From Bacillota bacterium (GTDB lineage: Bacteria > Bacillota > Bacilli > Alicyclobacillales > SLC66), in contig JAJZZT010000356.1 of assembly GCA_021797415.1 (NCBI GenBank), positions 1-8,596 of the forward strand: DNA of 8,596 nt, given 5' to 3'. The notes under the pieces were generated by a model. The model searched no databases. It worked only from the letters and a program-made list of their open reading frames with translations, and was not told the origin of the DNA. Every line of letters begins with the position of its first letter. Within the stretch, counting starts at the first letter, position 1. The position numbers and the translations under genes were made by a program. Shown here piece after piece: positions 487 to 7,067 of the stretch.

Positions 487-513
487 CAGACTCCCATGGC
501 GCCGACGCGCCAC

Positions 514-739
514 CATCGGCAGGATGAAAGTTAGCCGGGACGGCGGCCGCGCGCCAAACCAGTCTTAGGGTGATGGTTTGCTGGGCTGGCGTTATCCCCT
601 TTTCTCGTCGCGAGCTTGGCGCCATGGACAAGGTTTGCTGGGCCGGCGTTATCCCCTTTTCTCGTCGCGAGCTTGGCGATAGCGGTGTCCGAGCAGGAGC
701 AAAGGGATACTGGCGGCTAGCAGAGAAGACATTTTCAAG
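514..739. repeat. Modular foldback repeat, copy A
   Basis: This gene-free stretch is related to copy B (5595-5892) in the same orientation. The left end (514-545) matches 5595-5626 at about 25 of 32 bases, both beginning CATCGGCAGG. The core 621-699 matches 5654-5731 with about 9 substitutions and one 1-bp indel. The right end 704-739 matches 5859-5892, including GGGATACTGGCG and AGACATTTT. Within A the core can fold back: 645-663 (GGCGTTATCCCC then TTTTCTC) opposes 697-716 (GAGCAAAGGGATACTGGCGG), with the small palindrome CTCGTCGCGAG in the loop. The right arm 697-715 is the exact reverse complement of copy B's left arm 5677-5695 (19 of 19), so both derive from an ancestor with fully complementary arms and A's left arm has decayed. 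It lies between two convergent genes. No transposase is seen; it could be a MITE, a REP/BIME-like element or a structured RNA. Confidence 0.8.
575..678. repeat. Tandem duplication of a 47-bp unit inside copy A
   Basis: Bases 575-621 and 632-678 are direct repeats of 47 bp, starting GGTTTGCTGGG and ending CGAGCTTGGCG. They differ at one base (T at 586 versus C at 643) and are spaced with a 57-bp period. The 10-bp spacer is CCATGGACAA; the same CCATGGACAAGGTT junction occurs in copy B at 5655-5668, where the preceding unit has diverged strongly. A third, degenerate unit may begin near 530 (GTTAGCCGGGACGGCG). The near identity points to a recent duplication of one building block of the repeat. 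Confidence 0.85.
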
Positions 740-742
740 ACA

Positions 743-775
743 GGGCGCGCGGACCGATGTTCGGTCCGCGCGCCC
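743..775 (-). terminator. Hairpin downstream of the PBP gene
   Basis: A perfect 15-bp inverted repeat (arm GGGCGCGCGGACCGA) with the 3-base loop TGT begins 20 bp beyond the PBP stop codon. Position and stability fit an intrinsic terminator for the leftward PBP transcript. The downstream tract on the minus strand is CTGTCTTG rather than a true T-run, so termination could be imperfect or could involve other factors. It might also serve the convergent rightward gene. Confidence 0.65.
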
Positions 776-795
776 TCGTGGTGCGTCGGCAGAGG

Positions 796-2853
796 TCATG
801 GACCGGAGCCGTAGGTTGCTGATGTCGTGGTTGTCGGGCTGGACGGCGTCGGCAACTGGGAAGGAAATTCGGGGCCTGCGGCGGGCGGAACGCCGAATGT
901 ACCACCGTGCGCCGGCCAGCCCTGGCGGATGATTGCAGAAAACATCTCGGGCGGGAATTTGCTGGACCACTGCGGTAGGCTGTTGGAGAGCGTCGTGGTT
1001 GGATACCCTTCCCAGATGGCCCCCACCACATTGGGAGTAAAAGCGGCCACCCAGAGGTCGCTGTCTGTCTGCGACGTGTTCGTGTAGGCAACCGATCCGG
1101 TCTTGCCCGCCACCTGGTGACCGGGCGCGGCGGCCCCTGCCACGATGCCGTTCACGACGTTGTTCTGAAGCAGCGCCACCATCTGTTGCGCGGTGGACGG
1201 AGACATGACCGTTACGGGATTTGCGTTGTACTGGTAAAGCACGGTTCCCTTGTTGTTGACAATGCGGTCAATCGCGTGCGCCGGCAGCCGGACTCCCTGA
1301 TTGGCAAACGCGCTGTAGGCGTCGGCCAGGGTGAGAGGGGAGATGCCGGGCACCACGTTGCCAAGCGCGATGGTGAGGTTGTTGTTGGCCGGATTGCTCA
1401 GATTGACACCCGCCTTTGCAGCGAACTGGATGCCGGTGGGTATCCCGATCTGGCTGAGCAGCCAGACGGCGGGCGCGTTCCAAGATTCGGCGAGCGCCCA
1501 GCGCAGGCTGACGTACCCGTGGTAGGTGGCATGGCTCTCCCAGTCGCTCACCGTGTAGTTGCCAAATGACAGGTGGTTGTTGACGCCGTCCAGCAGCGCG
1601 GAATTCGCGTTCCACTGTCCGGACTGAATGGCGGGGCCATAGACGACAAGCGGCTTCATGGCGGAACCAGGCGAACGCTGGGTCTGTGTGGCGTAATCAA
1701 ATCCGCGGAATGTGTACTGGTTCTGCTTGCCGCCGACTAGGGCCATGATGGCTCCGGTGTGCGGGTTCAAAAAGACGGCGGCGCCCTGGATCTCCTGTGT
1801 TGCGCTGGACAGAGGAGTGGGGTAATAGGCCGGACTGTTGACCGCGTTATATGCCGCCTGTTGCAGTTGTGGGTCCAGTTCCGTGTAGATCTTCACACCG
1901 CCGCGCGTGAGGATCTGCGTGCTGATGTGCAGTTGGTTCAACTGCTGGTAGAGATAGTCGCGAAAATACGCGTATTGTGGCGGAACGCCCGTGCCCGTCG
2001 GCTGACCGGGGTGGAGTTCCAGGGGCGCCTTCTGGGCGGCGTGCATCTGTGTCAGCGTGATGTAGTGCGAGACGTACATACGCTGCAGGACTTCGTTGCG
2101 CCGCGTGATGGCCAATTTCGGATTGATGAGCGGATCGTACAGTGAGGGCGCCTGCGGCAAGCCTGCGATCAGCGCGCACTGCGGAAGTGTCATGCGCTTC
2201 ATCTGCGCCGGTTCGAGGCCGAAGTACGTATAGGCGGCCTGCTGGATTCCGGTTGCGTCATTGCCGAAATAGACATGGTTGAAGTACATGTCCAGCACCT
2301 GGGCCTTGCTGTAGTGCTTGGCGATCTGAATGGCGAGAATGAGTTGCTGCAGTTTGCGGGTCAGTGTTTTCGCGTCGCTCAGATAGACAAATTTCGCCAA
2401 TTGCTGGGTGATGGTGCTGGCACCCTGCGCGTAGCTGTGGTGGATGATGTCGTAAATCGCCGCGCGGATGTAACCGCGCAGACTGAATCCCTGATGATGG
2501 TAGAAACCCGCGTCCTCTGTCGCGATCAGCGCCTGCTGCAACTTGATGGGGATATCGCGCAGCGGAACATCGATCACGCCTTTGGGAGGGATCTGGAACA
2601 CAAGTTTTCCGTAGCGATCATAGACCTGTGTCGGCGCGCTCGTCTGGTCCAGCGTTTTGATATTGTATCTGTTTGTCTGCAGCATGTGAAGAAACGCGCT
2701 GACCATCGCCGCGAATGCAATGACCGCAAAGCTCAGTGTCCACGCGAGCTTTGTCCAGAACGACATGCGTTTGCGTTTTTTTCGCGGTTTTGCGTTTGAT
2801 CTTGCCTTGGCTGTCGGTTTCACAGTGGTTGTCGCTTTTATCCTGTTGCTCAT
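796..2853 (-). CDS. Class A penicillin-binding protein (PBP1A-type, bifunctional)
   Basis: The 685-residue protein has a cytoplasmic Lys/Arg-rich tail (1-30), one membrane anchor (about 33-56), a GT51 glycosyltransferase domain (about 75-260) and a transpeptidase domain (about 350-620). It ends in a Pro/Ser/Thr-rich tail (about 652-685). It would polymerise lipid II and cross-link peptidoglycan outside the membrane. GT51 motifs seen: EDAGFYHHQGF (Glu113), GASTITQQ (144-151), RKLQQ (166-170), KAQVLDMYFN (183-192) and RRNEVL (251-256). The third motif is normally RKxxE, so the usual Glu is Gln170 (CAA). Transpeptidase motifs are intact: SAMK with Ser397 as the expected acyl-enzyme, SWN (457-459) and KTGS (584-587). 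The ATG is preceded by AGGAGGT at 2864-2858 with good spacing. It diverges from the hydrolase at 2944 across a palindromic promoter region. Family assignment is firm; full GT activity is open because of Gln170. Confidence 0.96.
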   Translation of the reverse strand: MSNRIKATTTVKPTAKARSNAKPRKKRKRMSFWTKLAWTLSFAVIAFAAMVSAFLHMLQTNRYNIKTLDQTSAPTQVYDRYGKLVFQIPPKGVIDVPLRDIPIKLQQALIATEDAGFYHHQGFSLRGYIRAAIYDIIHHSYAQGASTITQQLAKFVYLSDAKTLTRKLQQLILAIQIAKHYSKAQVLDMYFNHVYFGNDATGIQQAAYTYFGLEPAQMKRMTLPQCALIAGLPQAPSLYDPLINPKLAITRRNEVLQRMYVSHYITLTQMHAAQKAPLELHPGQPTGTGVPPQYAYFRDYLYQQLNQLHISTQILTRGGVKIYTELDPQLQQAAYNAVNSPAYYPTPLSSATQEIQGAAVFLNPHTGAIMALVGGKQNQYTFRGFDYATQTQRSPGSAMKPLVVYGPAIQSGQWNANSALLDGVNNHLSFGNYTVSDWESHATYHGYVSLRWALAESWNAPAVWLLSQIGIPTGIQFAAKAGVNLSNPANNNLTIALGNVVPGISPLTLADAYSAFANQGVRLPAHAIDRIVNNKGTVLYQYNANPVTVMSPSTAQQMVALLQNNVVNGIVAGAAAPGHQVAGKTGSVAYTNTSQTDSDLWVAAFTPNVVGAIWEGYPTTTLSNSLPQWSSKFPPEMFSAIIRQGWPAHGGTFGVPPAAGPEFPSQLPTPSSPTTTTSATYGSGP

Positions 2854-2888
2854 GGATACCTCCTGGCCATCCCGCGTAGGCCACGTTT

Positions 2889-2917
2889 ATTGTATTACGA
2901 TTCTTTGTGATTCACAA
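2889..2917 (-). promoter_or_regulatory. Promoter for the PBP gene
   Basis: On the minus strand, TTGTGA (2917-2912, 4 of 6 to the -35 consensus) and TACAAT (2894-2889, 5 of 6 to the -10 consensus) are separated by exactly 17 bp. The predicted transcript starts near 2882 and has a leader of about 30 nt containing the AGGAGGT ribosome site. The -35 box lies inside the 21-bp palindrome at 2901-2921. Confidence 0.6.
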
Positions 2918-2921
2918 AGAA
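2901..2921. promoter_or_regulatory. Perfect 21-bp palindrome, candidate operator for both divergent genes
   Basis: The left arm TTCTTTGTGA (2901-2910) and right arm TCACAAAGAA (2912-2921) are exact inverted repeats around a single T at 2911. The site covers the -35 box of the leftward PBP promoter and the region just upstream of the extended -10 of the rightward hydrolase gene, so a bound dimer would control both. The half-site TTGTGA resembles those of Rex and CRP/FNR boxes. Those families have several bases between half-sites, not one, so the regulator is unknown. Confidence 0.65.
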
Positions 2922-2927
2922 AATTCG

Positions 2928-2936
2928 TGGTATAAT
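2928..2936 (+). promoter_or_regulatory. Extended -10 promoter for the coiled-coil hydrolase
   Basis: TGGTATAAT gives a consensus TATAAT (2931-2936) with a TG one base upstream, an extended -10. The best -35-like hexamer, TTGTGA at 2905-2910, leaves a 20-bp spacer, which is too long, so the extended -10 probably carries recognition. Transcription should begin near 2943, at or next to the ATG at 2944. This rules out the in-frame ATG at 2935, which overlaps the -10. Confidence 0.6.
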
Positions 2937-2943
2937 GCAGGGC

Positions 2944-4140
2944 ATGAGAGTGATAGACACATATCGACGCAAAATGGCAAAGTTTGCCGCATGCAGTGTG
3001 GTGTTGTCGCTTTTTGCGGCTGTGTCGGCGGGAGCGCCGGCGCAGGCTGCATCGTTGGCTTCGGAACAGCAACTGATCACTCAACTCCAGAATGCCGTCT
3101 CCACGAACAACGCGACGGTTGCGAACCATCAACAGGCGAGTCGCCTGCTGAACCTTCAAATTCAACAGTATGACGCTTCCATGGTGTCCATTCAAGAAGC
3201 GGTGCAGCGAAACGGCGGCAGCATGCGAAAGCTGGAGGCGAGACTCACCCGTCTGAAAGCGCAGACGCGCAAAAACGACGCGCAGCTTGCGCAGTGCAGG
3301 CAGGACTTGAAGAGTCAGTTGGTTGTCATGTACGAACGGGGTGCGGTATCCTATCTGTCGGTTCTGTTCAAAGCCACCTCCTGGCAGGATTTTCTCAATC
3401 GCATGAATCTCCTCCTGACAATCTCAAAGACCAACAAGAAACTGGAACTGCGCACGATGGCGCTGCAGCAGGCCGTTGCGGCGGATGCGCGCCGGACGGC
3501 TGTCGGCTACCGGACCCTGGCGCAAAAGCGCAACGAGGACGAAATCCTGCTGCAACAGGATGGACTGTTGGTGCAGCGCAAACGCACGGCGCTGTTTGAG
3601 ATCCGGCACGCGATTGCGAGCGAGATGGCCCGGCACGGACTGTTGGAAACGCAGATCCGGCTGACCAGGAAGCAGATTGCGGAGATTCAGACGGAAACTT
3701 CCAACGCGGAGTCGCTCATGCAAAGTAAAACGTATGTCCAGCAGGCTGAGGCCAACATGACCGGACTGAGCGCCCACAGCCTGTTGTCGTATGCGGATAA
3801 GTTTATGGGCACGCCGTACGTCTGGGGTGGGACAAGCCCATCCGGATTCGATTGTTCCGGTTTTGTCCAGTACGTGTTCAACCATTTTGGCGTATCGCTG
3901 CCCAGAACGTCCGAGGAGCAGTTTGCGACCGGCGTATCGGTATCGCAAAACAACCTCCAGCCTGGCGATCTCGTATTTTTCAGCACGTACGCTCCGGGCG
4001 CCACGCACGTGGGCATCTACATGGGCAACGGCCTCATGATCGACGCGCAGGACTACGGGGTTGTGATCGACAGCGTGTTCAATTCCTACTGGGGCCCCAA
4101 ATACCTGGGAGCCCGCCAGGTATTCAAGAGCGGCAACTGA
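2944..4140 (+). CDS. Secreted coiled-coil NlpC/P60 peptidoglycan endopeptidase (CwlO/PcsB-like)
   Basis: From ATG 2944 the protein has 398 residues. A signal peptide has a basic n-region (RRK), a hydrophobic core and likely cleavage after APAQA (about residue 35). Residues about 40-265 are a long, Gln/Arg/Lys-rich coiled coil. It includes the segment LSVLFKATSWQDFLNRMNLL, typical of the hinge of CwlO/PcsB proteins, which in known cases are switched on by FtsEX. The C-terminal NlpC/P60 domain (about 278-395) has PYVWGG, FDCSGF (Cys304), LQPGDLVFF and THVGIYMGNG (His355). It should cut the D-Glu to diamino-acid bond of stem peptides. The third catalytic position, usually His, appears to be Asp367 (MIDA). 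No Shine-Dalgarno sequence suits the ATG at 2944 or the alternative at 2974, and the promoter suggests leaderless translation. Neither ftsE nor ftsX is in the window. Confidence 0.93.
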   Translation: MRVIDTYRRKMAKFAACSVVLSLFAAVSAGAPAQAASLASEQQLITQLQNAVSTNNATVANHQQASRLLNLQIQQYDASMVSIQEAVQRNGGSMRKLEARLTRLKAQTRKNDAQLAQCRQDLKSQLVVMYERGAVSYLSVLFKATSWQDFLNRMNLLLTISKTNKKLELRTMALQQAVAADARRTAVGYRTLAQKRNEDEILLQQDGLLVQRKRTALFEIRHAIASEMARHGLLETQIRLTRKQIAEIQTETSNAESLMQSKTYVQQAEANMTGLSAHSLLSYADKFMGTPYVWGGTSPSGFDCSGFVQYVFNHFGVSLPRTSEEQFATGVSVSQNNLQPGDLVFFSTYAPGATHVGIYMGNGLMIDAQDYGVVIDSVFNSYWGPKYLGARQVFKSGN

Positions 4141-4147
4141 GACGGCC

Positions 4148-4182
4148 GCGGCGCTACTGCCGTTCAACAGCAGTAGCGCCGC
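4148..4182. terminator. Bidirectional hairpin across the convergent 3' ends
   Basis: A perfect 13-bp inverted repeat (arm GCGGCGCTACTGC at 4148-4160, partner 4170-4182) encloses a 9-base loop. It begins 8 bp after the hydrolase stop, and its loop and right arm contain the iadA stop codon (4164-4166) and last codons. There is no T-run on either strand. Its place between convergent genes only 23 bp apart makes a shared terminator the likeliest role. Confidence 0.6.
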
Positions 4183-5498
4183 CCTGCCTTGCGCTGTCGC
4201 TCGTCGCGGTCGGGGAAATCGTCCGGGTCGTCGTCGTCCGGATTCATCATGGTCCGTCCGCGTTCGTCGTCCACCCGGCCCGTGCTGTCCTTTCCGCCGG
4301 GCGCCCCGGGCACCCCGTCCACCTGTTCAAACGTACCCAGTACAATGGCCTTTCCTTCGTCGACCACCTGCCGCCCCTTGGCGAAGACATGGCGGATGCG
4401 GTACTGTTCGTCCGTCAGCACGATATCCGCGTCCGCGCCGGGACGGACCCTTCCCTTGTGGCCCAGCTTCAGCACGCGCGCCACGTTGCTGGTGACGATC
4501 GAAACGGCCTGTTCGACAGGCACGTTCTCGTGCACAATGGCGTCGCGCACCTCTTCCCAGAGTGTGGCGATGGATCCGATGCCCATGGCGACCAGCTTGC
4601 CTTTTTCGTCAAAGATGGGGGAACTGCCGTTGCTGTCGGAACTCATCGTGATCCAGTGCGGCTGCACGCCGGCGTCCAGCAGCCGGCGGATTGCCCTGGA
4701 CGGCTTGACCGAGATGTGATCGTGCTCATCGGGCCGTATGCCCGATGTCACGTCGACATAGCCGCCCTGCTTGCCGTATTGGATCGCCTGTTTCAATAAA
4801 TCCGGATTGCGGTTGAGGTGTGTCGGGGTGAAGACTGACCGGGGCAGTTCAGTCTGTTTGAGAACGTCGAAGAGAATCGCCAGTCCTTCTTCATCGTCGC
4901 CGACATGCAGGTGGAGGACGCCCGCTTTTCCCGCCAGCAGCCCTCCCACACGGGCTTCGCTTGCCAGTTCGGACAGATCGCGGTCGCTCGGATGGCTGGA
5001 GCGTGAGTCCGCGATGGCGATTTCTCCGACGCCGATCACTTTGTCGATGAGCACGATGTCGGTGCGCGGCATGCCCGTGATGGTGCGCGTCGGGACCTGG
5101 TAGGCGCCGCAGTAGATGTACGTGGTGATTCCTTCAAAGTCAAGGCCGTTTGCTTTGGCCAGCAATTCCCGCGTTCCCCGCGTGATGCCGTCTGTTCCGA
5201 GCACGCCGACGGCCGTCGTCACGCCTGCGGTCGTGATGTGGCTGAGCGAGATCTCCGGCGTGCGGTAGTGGAAGCCGCCTTCGCCGCCGCCGCCGGCCAT
5301 GTGGACGTGCTGGTCGATCAGGCCGGGGAACGCCAGCAGGCCGTCCGCGTCAAGTTCCGGGATGTCGATCCCGGAACCGTGAATGTGCAGATCGTCGCCT
5401 ATGGCAAGGATCTGTCTTCCGCCGAGCAGGATGTCCTTTTTGCCAAGCGGGCGCGGAGCGAATACGCGGGCCTGCCGAATGATCGTCAGAATGGACAT
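4164..5498 (-). CDS. iadA: Isoaspartyl dipeptidase (beta-aspartyl peptidase, IadA)
   Basis: This metal-dependent amidohydrolase hydrolyses beta-aspartyl (isoAsp) dipeptides in the cytoplasm. From ATG 5498 it has 444 residues against about 390 for E. coli IadA. Metal and active-site motifs align well: DQHVH (His64, His66), GGGGEGG, RTPE, GAYQVPTRTITG, HLHVGD (His198), PTHLNRN (His227) and SSDSNGS (Asp288). The bridging position, a carboxylated Lys in E. coli, is Glu159 (VGEIAIADSRS), as I recall for many Firmicute homologues. Family similarity ends at GTFEQ (about residue 391); about 50 extra residues follow, very Asp-rich (NPDDDDPDD), then basic, ending in two Cys. I chose ATG 5498 because it matches the family N-terminus and has AAGGA about 8 bases upstream. 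ATG at 5522 (AGGA only 3 bases upstream) and 5597 are alternatives, the latter overlapping the edge of repeat copy B. Confidence 0.95.
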   Translation of the reverse strand: MSILTIIRQARVFAPRPLGKKDILLGGRQILAIGDDLHIHGSGIDIPELDADGLLAFPGLIDQHVHMAGGGGEGGFHYRTPEISLSHITTAGVTTAVGVLGTDGITRGTRELLAKANGLDFEGITTYIYCGAYQVPTRTITGMPRTDIVLIDKVIGVGEIAIADSRSSHPSDRDLSELASEARVGGLLAGKAGVLHLHVGDDEEGLAILFDVLKQTELPRSVFTPTHLNRNPDLLKQAIQYGKQGGYVDVTSGIRPDEHDHISVKPSRAIRRLLDAGVQPHWITMSSDSNGSSPIFDEKGKLVAMGIGSIATLWEEVRDAIVHENVPVEQAVSIVTSNVARVLKLGHKGRVRPGADADIVLTDEQYRIRHVFAKGRQVVDEGKAIVLGTFEQVDGVPGAPGGKDSTGRVDDERGRTMMNPDDDDPDDFPDRDERQRKAGRRYCC

Positions 5499-5533
5499 GG
5501 TCATCATCCTTGCGCGTAACATTTTTCCTTTTT

Positions 5534-5561
5534 GTAGTATGGCCTGGGGGTGCAGTGACAA
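5534..5561 (-). promoter_or_regulatory. Weak candidate promoter for iadA
   Basis: On the minus strand, TTGTCA (5561-5556, 5 of 6) is followed after 16 bp by TACTAC (5539-5534), only 3 of 6 to TATAAT. A start near 5527 would give a short leader to ATG 5498 and would exclude the start at 5597. The weak -10 keeps confidence low; readthrough from the upstream NlpC/P60 gene is the alternative. Confidence 0.3.
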
Positions 5562-5594
5562 TCCAGATTCAACCTTCATGGTGCCGAAACTCCC

Positions 5595-5892
5595 CATCGG
5601 CAGGCTGAAAATTTGCTGGACTGGCGCCCTGTCCCGTGCCCGGCGAGTTCCGCGCCATGGACAAGGTTAGCTGGGTCGCCAGTATCCCTTTGCTCGTCGC
5701 GAGTTTAGCGATAGCGGTGTACGAGCAGGAGTCCGGGGACATGGGATCCAGTCTTTGAAGGGCGGGCGGACTCGTTTGGATCGAACGTTTGAGGCGTTAG
5801 ACAAACGTCCGATCGACCCGCATCGCCTGCCAAAGATGGGTGGATCCAATGTCCCCGGGGGATACTGGCGACTAGCAGAAGACATTTTTAAG
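5595..5892. repeat. Modular foldback repeat, copy B (with extra hairpin domain)
   Basis: This is the second member of the family at 514-739 and fills the gap of more than 400 bp between iadA and the SH3-NlpC gene. It starts CATCGGCAGG, has one degenerate unit, then the CCATGGACAAGGTT junction. The outer stem is GTCGCCAGTATCCC (5675-5688) with its exact complement at 5859-5872, 14 of 14. Inside are a small hairpin with arms TGCTCGT (5690-5696) and ACGAGCA (5720-5726), and a long foldback (5733-5858) that copy A lacks. Drawn as RNA it is a closed three-way junction. The right end ACTAGCAGAAGACATTTTTAAG matches copy A. Both copies lie just beyond the 3' end of a leftward cell-wall gene, in the same orientation. 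There is no transposase and no obvious target-site duplication. Confidence 0.8.
5733..5858. repeat. 126-nt long foldback specific to copy B
   Basis: The stretch folds on itself almost end to end. 5733-5750 pairs with 5841-5858 (17 of 18, arm CCGGGGACATGGGATCCA). TCTTTG at 5752-5757 pairs with CAAAGA at 5831-5836. GCGGGCG at 5762-5768 pairs with CGCCTGC at 5824-5830 with one wobble. GATCGAACGTTTG at 5779-5791 pairs with 5802-5814 (12 of 13), closed by the loop AGGCGTTAGA. In copy A the position is occupied only by CAAA (700-703), so this is a discrete gained or lost domain. It could be an RNA arm or a nested miniature insertion. Confidence 0.75.
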
Positions 5893-5898
5893 GTTGGA

Positions 5899-5926
5899 GG
5901 ATGTCCTGCGCTCCCTCAGAACATCC
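5899..5926 (-). terminator. Possible terminator overlapping the end of the SH3-NlpC gene
   Basis: On the minus strand GGATGTTCTG pairs with CAGGACATCC over 10 bp (one G-U pair) around an 8-base loop, with the TGA stop codon inside the structure. No T-run follows (TCCAACCTT). Its position at the gene end, mirroring the hairpin between copy A and the PBP gene, supports a termination or mRNA 3'-end role, with modest confidence. Confidence 0.4.
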
Positions 5927-7067
5927 GGCGGGCGGCGACGAGATGGTGTGACCAGAATCCGGTGGTGATAGACAGGTAGCCTGCCTTTCCGAGCCCTCCA
6001 CCTTCCTGGATCATCCGGCCATTGCCGATGTAGATGCCGACGTGCGCGGAACCCGTTGGGTTGGTGGTGTTGGAGAAAAACAGCAGATCGCCCGGTTGGA
6101 TGGCGTTCAACGCCACGGGCCAGCCCACGCTGTGAAACTGCACGGCAGACGACGTGGAGAAAAGATAGCCGAGCGCGTGGTGAAAGACGTATTCGACGTA
6201 GTTCGAACAGTCAAAGCCGTATTGTCCCCGGTCTTCGTTGTGTCCCCAGATGTACGGCGTGCCGAGTTTGCTTTGCGCAATCTGCAAAACAGCCTGGAAT
6301 TTGGCTTGCGGGCTTGCGCTTGTCCCGGCGGCGGGCGTGATTGACGGGTCCAGATGTACGCCGGGGGGGAGAGAGAAGCCGTTTGACGGCGCCGGGGACA
6401 GGCTTGCGCCACTCGGGACAGAGCTTTGGCTTCCAGCGCCGGAAGTCGCCTGAGACGCGCTTGGAGAGGCACTCTGCGGTGTGGCTGGTGTCTTTGCGGT
6501 GACTTTGACGTAGGTCTGGTTCCCTGTGATATAGCCGGACTTTCCGTTCGGGAGCCGGACATGCAGCCAGTATGCGTTGCCGCCGGACAGCAGTTGCATC
6601 TGCGTGCCCGCAGGCACAAGCGAAATCAGGTTGTTCCATCCAAGTTGAGGCGATGTTTTCAGATACGCCGCGCGCTGCACGATTGCGCCGCCTGCGGCAG
6701 ATGGCGTCGCCTGCCGCACGGTGGACGGTGCGGACCGGAGGGCTGCGGTCGTCGGTTGCACCTGGACGTAGTACCGGTCCGCCGTGATGTAGCCAGTCTT
6801 TCCGTCGGGCAGCCGGACGTGCAGCCAGTATGCGTTGCCGCCGGAAAGGATGCTCATATCGGTGCCTGCGGGAACGAGCGTGATCAGATTGTTCCAGCCG
6901 AGCCGTGCGGATGTCTTGAGATACGCGGCATGCGCCACGACGGCTTGCCCGCCCTGCGCGGCGAGCGCGGCGGCCGGAGGTCCTGCGCCGATTGCCGCCG
7001 CAAGTGCGACGGCGGTTATGAACGCCCTTGTCGGATGCTTGTGTGAAACATGCTGCATCGATGCCAT
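5916..7067 (-). CDS. Secreted NlpC/P60 cell-wall endopeptidase with two SH3 domains
   Basis: The 383-residue protein has a signal peptide (basic residues near 10-14, Ala-rich core, likely cleavage near AALA, residue 36). Two bacterial SH3-like domains follow (about 43-104 and 129-190), then a Ser/Pro/Ala/Gln-rich linker (about 192-255) and a C-terminal NlpC/P60 domain (about 256-383). The SH3 domains should bind wall peptides and position the enzyme, which would cleave stem peptides outside the cell. Catalytic motifs are GTPYIWG, FDCSNYV (Cys287), IQPGDLLFF and AHVGIYIGNG (His342). The third polar residue is Gln354 (MIQE), an accepted variant where His is commoner. ATG 7067 is preceded by GGGAGGA (7080-7074), spacing about 7, which decides the start. 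It lies 122 bp after lysR on the same strand; no clear promoter of its own was found, so co-transcription or a promoter in the hairpin region is possible. Confidence 0.94.
   Translation of the reverse strand: MASMQHVSHKHPTRAFITAVALAAAIGAGPPAAALAAQGGQAVVAHAAYLKTSARLGWNNLITLVPAGTDMSILSGGNAYWLHVRLPDGKTGYITADRYYVQVQPTTAALRSAPSTVRQATPSAAGGAIVQRAAYLKTSPQLGWNNLISLVPAGTQMQLLSGGNAYWLHVRLPNGKSGYITGNQTYVKVTAKTPATPQSASPSASQATSGAGSQSSVPSGASLSPAPSNGFSLPPGVHLDPSITPAAGTSASPQAKFQAVLQIAQSKLGTPYIWGHNEDRGQYGFDCSNYVEYVFHHALGYLFSTSSAVQFHSVGWPVALNAIQPGDLLFFSNTTNPTGSAHVGIYIGNGRMIQEGGGLGKAGYLSITTGFWSHHLVAARRMF
6501..6929 (-). repeat. Internal duplication encoding the two SH3 domains
   Basis: Codons 47-103 (6929-6759) and 133-189 (6671-6501) encode 57-residue blocks identical at 44 positions, both with AAYLKTS, LGWNNLI, SGGNAYWLHVRLP and GYIT. 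At the DNA level a 35-bp stretch (6553-6587 and 6811-6845) differs at one base. The repeat period is 258 bp. This indicates a fairly recent in-frame duplication or gene conversion. Confidence 0.85.

What the first reader, a model, noticed from the sequence alone, without database searches (positions are those of the whole stretch)
514..739. Copy A of a modular foldback element, partner of 5595-5892
Two gene-free regions about 5 kb apart share ends, core and orientation. The 19-base arm CGCCAGTATCCCTTTGCTC in copy B (5677-5695) is the exact reverse complement of copy A's right arm (697-715). Each copy thus preserves the half the other has lost, implying a common ancestor with complementary arms. 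Both copies sit just downstream of leftward cell-wall genes. No known element name fits what I see.
Basis: partly seen in the sequence, partly recalled or inferred. Interest (0 to 1): 0.7.

Follow-up and report, generated by a model that had tools for sequence, protein, structure and literature searches.

The report
Clade-specific mobile DNA hairpin repeat family
Two gaps between genes in this bacterium's DNA carry copies of an apparently unnamed hairpin repeat whose stem keeps changing in matched pairs while its tip stays the same, and which some relatives carry in tens of copies that come and go between species.

Summary
Copy A (about 497-739) and copy B (5594-5892) belong to a high-copy, modular hairpin repeat. 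A covariance model built here finds it in 5 of 59 genomes of the order (42, 78, 80, 80, 12 copies; only 80 candidates per genome scored) and in 4 of 398 drawn from the class, all of them among those five. The unit is a 16-19 bp stem around a constant ~30-nt tip. In 44 chosen copies 94.4% of pair cells are paired and 16 of 19 stem pairs change on both sides (173 double-change cells against 41.6 shuffled). A relative collinear with most of the window lacks the element at both sites. Best reading: a non-autonomous mobile hairpin whose structure is needed for propagation; the mobiliser is unknown and an RNA role stays open. No Rfam match; REP features tested are not met. A new variant of the small interspersed hairpin repeats.

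The parts
497..739 (+). copy A of the hairpin repeat, with its 5' module
   Evidence: the 5' part (CATGGCGC..GCGCCACCATC.GCAGGATGAAA) recurs in relatives' copies; the left end is set by eye
575..621 (+). first, partial left half of the hairpin (tandem duplicate)
   Evidence: 98% identical to 632-678 (D2)
641..660 (+). copy A stem, 5' arm (drifted)
661..696 (+). copy A constant tip CTCGTCGCGAG..GAGCAG
   Evidence: model R2 match 640-719, 59.5 bits
697..718 (+). copy A stem, 3' arm
   Evidence: 697-715 is the exact reverse complement of B's 5' arm (I3)
719..739 (+). copy A 3' tail
   Evidence: D5, D8; compared by eye with relatives' tails
742..776 (.). perfect 16-bp inverted repeat beside copy A between convergent genes (terminator-like; not part of the element)
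   Evidence: I11; the syntenic G307 gap has a different hairpin and no element
5594..5892 (+). copy B of the hairpin repeat, interrupted
   Evidence: (5673-5748, 44.6 bits)
5675..5692 (+). copy B stem, 5' arm
   Evidence: I3, I21
5693..5728 (+). copy B constant tip
5732..5858 (.). 127-bp foldback inserted in copy B's 3' arm; probably a different MITE
   Evidence: arms 5733-5750/5841-5858 94% complementary (I8); fold z -7.73 for 5590-5900; weak matches to a multi-copy foldback in G309
5859..5872 (+). copy B stem, remaining 3' arm
   Evidence: 14-nt perfect complement of 5675-5688 (I21)
5873..5892 (+). copy B 3' tail
   Evidence: D5, D8
796..2853 (-). penicillin-binding protein (Transgly + Transpeptidase); neighbour of A
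5916..7067 (-). NlpC/P60 + SH3_3 protein; neighbour of B
4164..5597 (-). amidohydrolase ORF (longest frame; the real start is probably further in), other neighbour of B

Best explanation
A and B are copies of a non-autonomous mobile repeat. The working part is one hairpin: a 16-19 bp stem around a constant ~30-nt tip, flanked by short modules that duplicate and drop out. The hairpin is needed for copying: it is recognised through the constant tip, most simply as single-stranded DNA, by an enzyme supplied in trans. Stems therefore change mainly by matched pairs in the copying lineages, while individual copies decay. Copies tolerated between genes accumulate and are later lost or replaced. B was afterwards hit by a different foldback element. 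Shown: family, copy number, clade restriction within the genomes searched, stem covariation, constant tip, presence/absence at orthologous sites. Inferred: mobility in trans, recognition of the tip, the single-strand step.
For: High copy number in 5 of 59 genomes of the order, no match at E<=0.01 in the other 54. Stem: 94.4% of 960 cells paired (shuffled 74.4), covariation 0.532 (shuffled 0.156; slid 0.059-0.187). The tip is kept in G254 although arms and flanks differ: 12 of 13 fetched loci carry it with 0-5 edits, one does not. At both window sites the collinear relative G307 has a short gap without the element: flanks aligned, gaps read, no model match there. Between G310 and G311 a model-supported hairpin is present in one and absent in the other at four of 14 junctions examined (3, 7, 10, 11); at 10 the difference is little more than the hairpin. 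Among orthologous copies of one arm type several stems carry a pair-breaking change (L033, L081, L082, L100, G310_C123), as expected if selection acts on propagation and not on each copy.
Against: No mobiliser found. All five carriers have Y1 transposase genes, but so do 8 of 13 non-carriers; of the 53 Y1 places only 12 were fetched, 5 of them in carriers, and none has an element nearby. RVT_1 is absent from two carriers. With the elements masked, no protein family recurs at three loci of one genome (112 loci). No clear target-site duplication at hairpin junctions. An orientation bias in tandem gaps of some carriers hints at a transcript-level constraint. Some orthologous pairs do show compensated changes (G310_C96/G311_C86; L027/L033). 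Copy A's own fold is no better than shuffles (z 0.02 as DNA over 500-760; z -1.28 as RNA over 627-739).
Confidence: 0.66

Rival explanations
1. A structured RNA or mRNA leader/trailer element: the hairpin acts when transcribed (stability, attenuation or protein binding at the constant tip) and is kept by the host at many loci.
For: A constant tip on a compensated stem is typical of RNA motifs; in tandem gaps 56 same-strand against 19 opposite copies; by genome 14:2 (G309), 11:2 (G310), 16:6 (G311, p 0.05), 3:0 (G254); at least one compensated change between orthologous copies.
Against: No bias in G307 (9:7), and B is antisense to both neighbours; copies in G309-G311 are partly the same loci, so counts are not independent; presence/absence and different hairpin families at the same locus; pair-breaking changes in single copies; no Rfam match.
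Confidence: 0.22
2. A member of the REP/BIME class moved by a RAYT (REP-associated tyrosine transposase).
For: Extragenic, palindromic, many copies, mosaic arrays, 3' end often GGGATAG or GGGTAG; all five carriers have Y1 genes.
Against: Stem and loop are longer than in the published GTAG and CGTC families (PMC3733652, passages); the 5 carrier Y1 loci examined have no element nearby, and Y1 genes also occur in 8 of 13 non-carriers.
Confidence: 0.07
3. One reading: one ancestral foldback of which A and B each kept one half.
For: The exact 19-nt reverse complement between A and B.
Against: Both copies contain both arms; A's left arm is drifted and duplicated, B's right arm is split by an insert.
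Confidence: 0.03

Closest known systems
GTAG-/CGTC-tagged REPs and BIMEs
   Same: Small extragenic palindromes in high copy; CGTC REPs also lack a known transposase (PMC3733652, abstract and passages).
   Different: There: stems 5-13 bp with loops of 2-20 nt (CGTC: 8-9 bp, 4-5 nt) and a terminal tag. Here: 16-19 bp with a constant ~30-nt tip that can itself carry an extra hairpin.
Pneumococcal BOX elements
   Same: Composite modules with a repeatable internal one (boxB there, the left half here), intergenic, predicted structured (PMC3049150, passages).
   Different: Those pneumococcal repeats are over-represented between convergent genes; here 11 of 119. Sequences were not compared.
bcr1 and other stem-loop families of bacterial genomes
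   Same: Intergenic, tens to hundreds of bp, predicted common fold (PMC2267715, passages).
   Different: Not compared by sequence; 'alicyclobacill' occurs 0 times in that paper's main text.
Hairpins processed by IS200/IS605-type and other HUH enzymes (recalled, from no call)
   Same: A stem free to vary while a recognised single-stranded motif stays fixed; insertion without target duplication.
   Different: No dedicated enzyme is linked to this family.

Membership tests
REP (GTAG or CGTC super-family) | short stem (5-13 bp) and short loop with terminal GTAG or CGTC tag | tested here: not met
   stem 16-19 bp, ~30-nt tip; CGTC lies inside the tip and reads CGAG in one subfamily; definition from PMC3733652
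REP (GTAG) / REPtron | copies flank a RAYT gene | tested here: inconclusive
   12 of 53 Y1_Tnp places fetched, 5 of the 12 in carriers; no element module or model match in any; 41 places not examined
BOX-like composite repeat | modular composition with a repeated internal module | tested here: met
   57-nt left half twice in A; optional modules in relatives
BOX (the pneumococcal family itself) | boxA/boxB/boxC sequence | not tested
   no BOX sequence was fetched or compared
MITE | terminal inverted repeats and target-site duplication | tested here: inconclusive
   no clear duplication at junctions 3, 7, 10, 11; a 52-bp associated module is flanked by a 12-15 bp direct repeat (junction 9), which deletion could also explain
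MITE | multi-copy and absent at some orthologous sites | tested here: met
IS200/IS605-derived element | a Y1 transposase that recognises the hairpin | not testable with these tools
   Y1 genes in all 5 carriers and 8 of 13 non-carriers; recognition cannot be tested here
any Rfam family | covariance-model match | tested here: not met
   0 matches at E<=1 in the window; 0 at E<=0.1 in 15 relatives' loci

The most novel reading that the evidence does not exclude
The constant tip is the recognition and nicking site of a still unidentified nuclease or transposase, so that stems are free to change by compensation: a hairpin mobile-element family defined by its loop and not by its ends, with its own unknown mobiliser in this clade.
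Probability: 0.22. Interest if true: 0.72.

Novelty: new variant of a known kind. Interest (0 to 1): 0.47.

Why it matters
Small hairpin repeats are common in bacteria, but for many of them the enzyme that moves them is unknown. Here one clade offers a natural series: the same tip, several stem families that changed pair by pair, related genomes with tens of copies or more, relatives without any match, and sites that are filled in one species and empty in the next. That makes it testable whether such hairpins are kept as DNA substrates for copying or as RNA elements useful to the host, and gives a fixed bait (the tip) with which to look for the enzyme. It also shows how a second foldback nested in the first can be misread as one element.

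Tried and rejected
Exact 20-mer scan of genome contigs: 8 loci, six of them labelled Proteobacteria-type organisms and two Bacillota, that match A or B only over about 20-31 nt around the pattern and are judged chance. The same pattern and a second one gave nothing in viral contigs. Plasmids: no match for window 5590-5895. Rfam: none. Mobiliser candidates: Y1_Tnp is in all carriers but also in 8 of 13 non-carriers; RVT_1 is missing in two carriers. Recurring ORFs beside copies disappear when the elements are masked, so they were frames through the elements. The first alignment A1 was out of register in the 3' arm and gave 11 pairs; A2 with 44 hand-chosen rows replaced it. The arm parser mis-anchored some copies (20 of 106 with 11 pairs or fewer), so its averages and its swapped-arm control are not used. 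Gene context was first run without removing ORFs that run through copies (70 copies overlapped a mechanical ORF of 80 aa or more, 8 of the 40 listed being 250 aa or more); one search drops or shortens such ORFs, an assumption. A pseudoknot between an upstream GCTC and GAGC in the tip was considered and not tested. Literature: five searches listed no paper that I recognised as describing this family; apart from passages or abstracts of PMC3733652, PMC2267715 and PMC3049150 only listings were seen.

Full report
OBSERVATION. Both copies exist at the stated places. Repeat finding gives the co-oriented shared segments and the exact 19-nt inverted match 697-715 / 5677-5695. Copy A holds its left half twice (575-621, 632-678). 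Copy B's right arm survives as 5859-5872, a perfect complement of 5675-5688, but is separated from the tip by a 127-bp foldback at 5732-5858. Model R2, built from 44 copies of which A is one and B is not, matches 640-719 at 59.5 bits and 5673-5748 at 44.6 bits; the next best place in the window scores 16.3.

WHOSE DNA. The window's genome is not held. The penicillin-binding protein's best named relatives are Sulfoacidibacillus (69-71%); an unnamed one is 86% identical and lies on a contig of the same length as G307:C90, so probably in that genome (inference). G307:C90:35195-42994 is collinear with most of the window; window 811-5547 aligns at 77.8%. I take the host to be a member of Alicyclobacillaceae or near it (inference).

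FAMILY AND DISTRIBUTION. A 146-base piece of B gives 53 matches in G307 and 46, 40 and 40 in G309, G310 and G311 among 18 genomes of one family (E<=1, at most 40 candidates scored per genome); six others had weak matches (best E 0.03 or worse), eight none. With R2, 5 of 59 genomes of the order are positive at E<=0.01: G307 42, G309 78, G310 80, G311 80, G254 12. At most 80 candidates per genome were scored, so the high counts are lower bounds, and strict filters may miss weak copies elsewhere. G254 alone gives 13 at E<=1. Of 398 genomes drawn from the class 4 are positive at E<=0.001, all among those five; only 11 candidates per genome were scored there, so this excludes many-copy carriers better than single copies. 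In fetched long stretches R2 finds, each place counted once, 9 copies in 393 kb of G307 and 19 in 369 kb of G311 and 28 in 382 kb of G310. These contigs were chosen because they bear copies, so scaling up would overestimate; I give no genome-wide figure beyond the counts above.

ANATOMY. On the element strand: a variable 5' part with short hairpins (CATGGCGC..GCGCC, ACCATCAGCAGGATGAAAA), a GCT motif, the stem, the tip, the other arm, a (G/A)GCA motif and a tail that in many relatives' copies ends ..TTTTCGGGATAG (by eye). Stem arms come in different families: GGAGTCATATATTGCG, GGATTCATATGCTGTG, GGAATCGTATGCTGTG (G309-G311), CGCCCGTATCCCTTTG (G307), CGGTCACGCATACTGG (G254) and the window's CGCCAGTATCCCTTTG. 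The tip stays close to GTCGCGAGTTYRGCG..GTGTCTGAGCAG; in many G307 copies it carries an extra hairpin, and in G254 it is kept in 12 of 13 fetched loci with 0-5 edits while arms and flanks differ.

COVARIATION. A2 has 44 copies that I chose and trimmed to be in register; the G307 copies with an extra tip hairpin and the interrupted copy B were left out, as were near-duplicates. 22 pairs: 94.4% of 960 cells paired (shuffled 74.4), 173 double-change cells (shuffled 41.6), covariation 0.532 (shuffled 0.156), 0 of 500 shuffles as high on any measure; slid versions 0.059-0.187. 16 of the 19 stem pairs change on both sides; the inner 3-pair helix is weakly supported (81.8% of cells, one pair unpaired in 21 of 44). 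Relatedness inflates shuffle tests; the slid control keeps relatedness. Six relatives' hairpins fold with z of -6.2 to -8.2; copy A's does not stand out (z -1.28).

GAIN, LOSS AND REPLACEMENT. At the syntenic sites G307 has 117 bp (site A, against 337 in the window) and 80 bp (site B, against 368), each with another hairpin that looks like a terminator. In the two 20-kb pieces holding these sites the model's only match at E<=0.01 is G307:C90:43931-44013, about 1.4 kb from site A. G310 and G311 are 91-97% identical in the long shared stretches. Of the breaks between them I examined 14. Four are presence/absence of a hairpin that R2 also detects in the filled genome (3, 7, 11 in G310; 10 in G311); 11 is a longer subfamily (44.6 bits). 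At 7 the shorter allele seems to keep a tail remnant, so loss occurs too. Two (6, 12) have the hairpin in both and differ in modules, one (2) has different hairpin families at the same place, and seven (1, 4, 5, 8, 9, 13, 14) are other insertions or deletions, 8 being a conventional MITE with duplicated TATAGA. No clear target duplication was seen for the hairpin. Among 22 orthologous or partly orthologous pairs (tandem copies counted more than once), three G310/G311 loci carry different hairpin families (C120/C83, C96/C86 at 37991/26897, C161/C79 at 10903/8545); differential loss from a tandem array is a simple account. In pairs of one family both compensated (G310_C96/G311_C86; L027/L033) and pair-breaking changes (L033, L081, L082, L100, G310_C123) occur; the sample is too small for a rate.

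PLACE RELATIVE TO GENES. Of 131 distinct copies, 11 were too near the end of a stretch; a longest-ORF gene finder, with ORFs running through a copy dropped or shortened, places 119: 56 tandem same-strand, 19 tandem opposite, 33 divergent, 11 convergent, and one in a gap over 1200 nt. With a stricter ORF limit: 53/18/31/12 of 114. By genome the tandem ratio is 14:2, 11:2, 16:6, 9:7 and 3:0, so the bias is not universal, and copies in G309-G311 are partly the same loci. Copy A was not placed (too near the window's end for the script); it lies between convergent genes by inspection.

MECHANISM. Shown: a high-copy, clade-limited hairpin family with paired change of the stem, a fixed tip and presence/absence between close relatives. 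Inferred: the hairpin is the substrate of an enzyme acting in trans and the fixed tip is what it recognises, as in hairpins processed by HUH enzymes (recalled comparison). Against: no such enzyme was found. All five carriers have Y1 transposase genes, but so do 8 of 13 non-carriers; of 53 Y1 places 12 were fetched, 5 in carriers, without an element nearby. RVT_1 is absent from G307 and G311. With copies masked by 150 or 300 nt, no protein family recurs at three loci of one genome among 112 loci; these loci extend only 1-1.5 kb. The RNA rival remains open.

COPY B'S INSERT. The 127-bp foldback has weak matches (E 0.02-0.06, 72-82%) at seven places in G309 and one in G310. The three of these whose DNA I read are foldbacks with the same kind of ends (..GGACATGTGATAAAGTC / TTTATCACATGTCCC..) and a shared GCCTGCCAAA..GGGT block. 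Short matches in G307, G302 and G313 are less informative. I read B as the hairpin repeat hit by a member of that second family; the ends are similar, not identical.

COMPARISON. It works like the small interspersed hairpin repeats. By stem, loop and tag it is not a tagged REP (PMC3733652, abstract and passages); it shares modularity with BOX but not convergent enrichment (PMC3049150, passages), and matches no Rfam family. Five literature searches listed nothing that I recognised as this family.

Noticed in passing
window 5732-5858: Foldback inserted in copy B, probably of a second MITE family with inverted ends like GGACATG..CATGTCC that has several copies in a relative (G309).
   Followed up: partly
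G311:C83 near 40746-40907 (L142) and G311:C86 near 2633-2788 (L143): Conventional ~155-160 bp MITE with ends like GGTTGTTCAAAAAGGG..CCCTTTTTGAACAAGCC; the C86 copy has a duplicated TATAGA and an empty site in G310.
   Followed up: no
L219, and L035 downstream of its hairpin: In G307 another small foldback (GGGAACTGTGAAAAAGTCCGGAGC..) occurs, once right beside a hairpin repeat.
   Followed up: no
G310:C96:15917-15968 (L195): A 52-bp module (CCAACAACCGGGAAGAAAATACGCC.. on one strand) lies in G310 between two copies of a 12-15 bp direct repeat and is absent in G311: an independent mobile module or a recombination deletion.
   Followed up: partly
window 6483-6682 and 6741-6940: The leftward NlpC/P60 gene carries two ~200-nt direct repeats (73% identical), probably duplicated SH3-like domains.
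   Followed up: no
window 3981-4041 / 6009-6069: The two NlpC/P60 genes, on opposite strands, share a 61-nt inverted match (77%).
   Followed up: no
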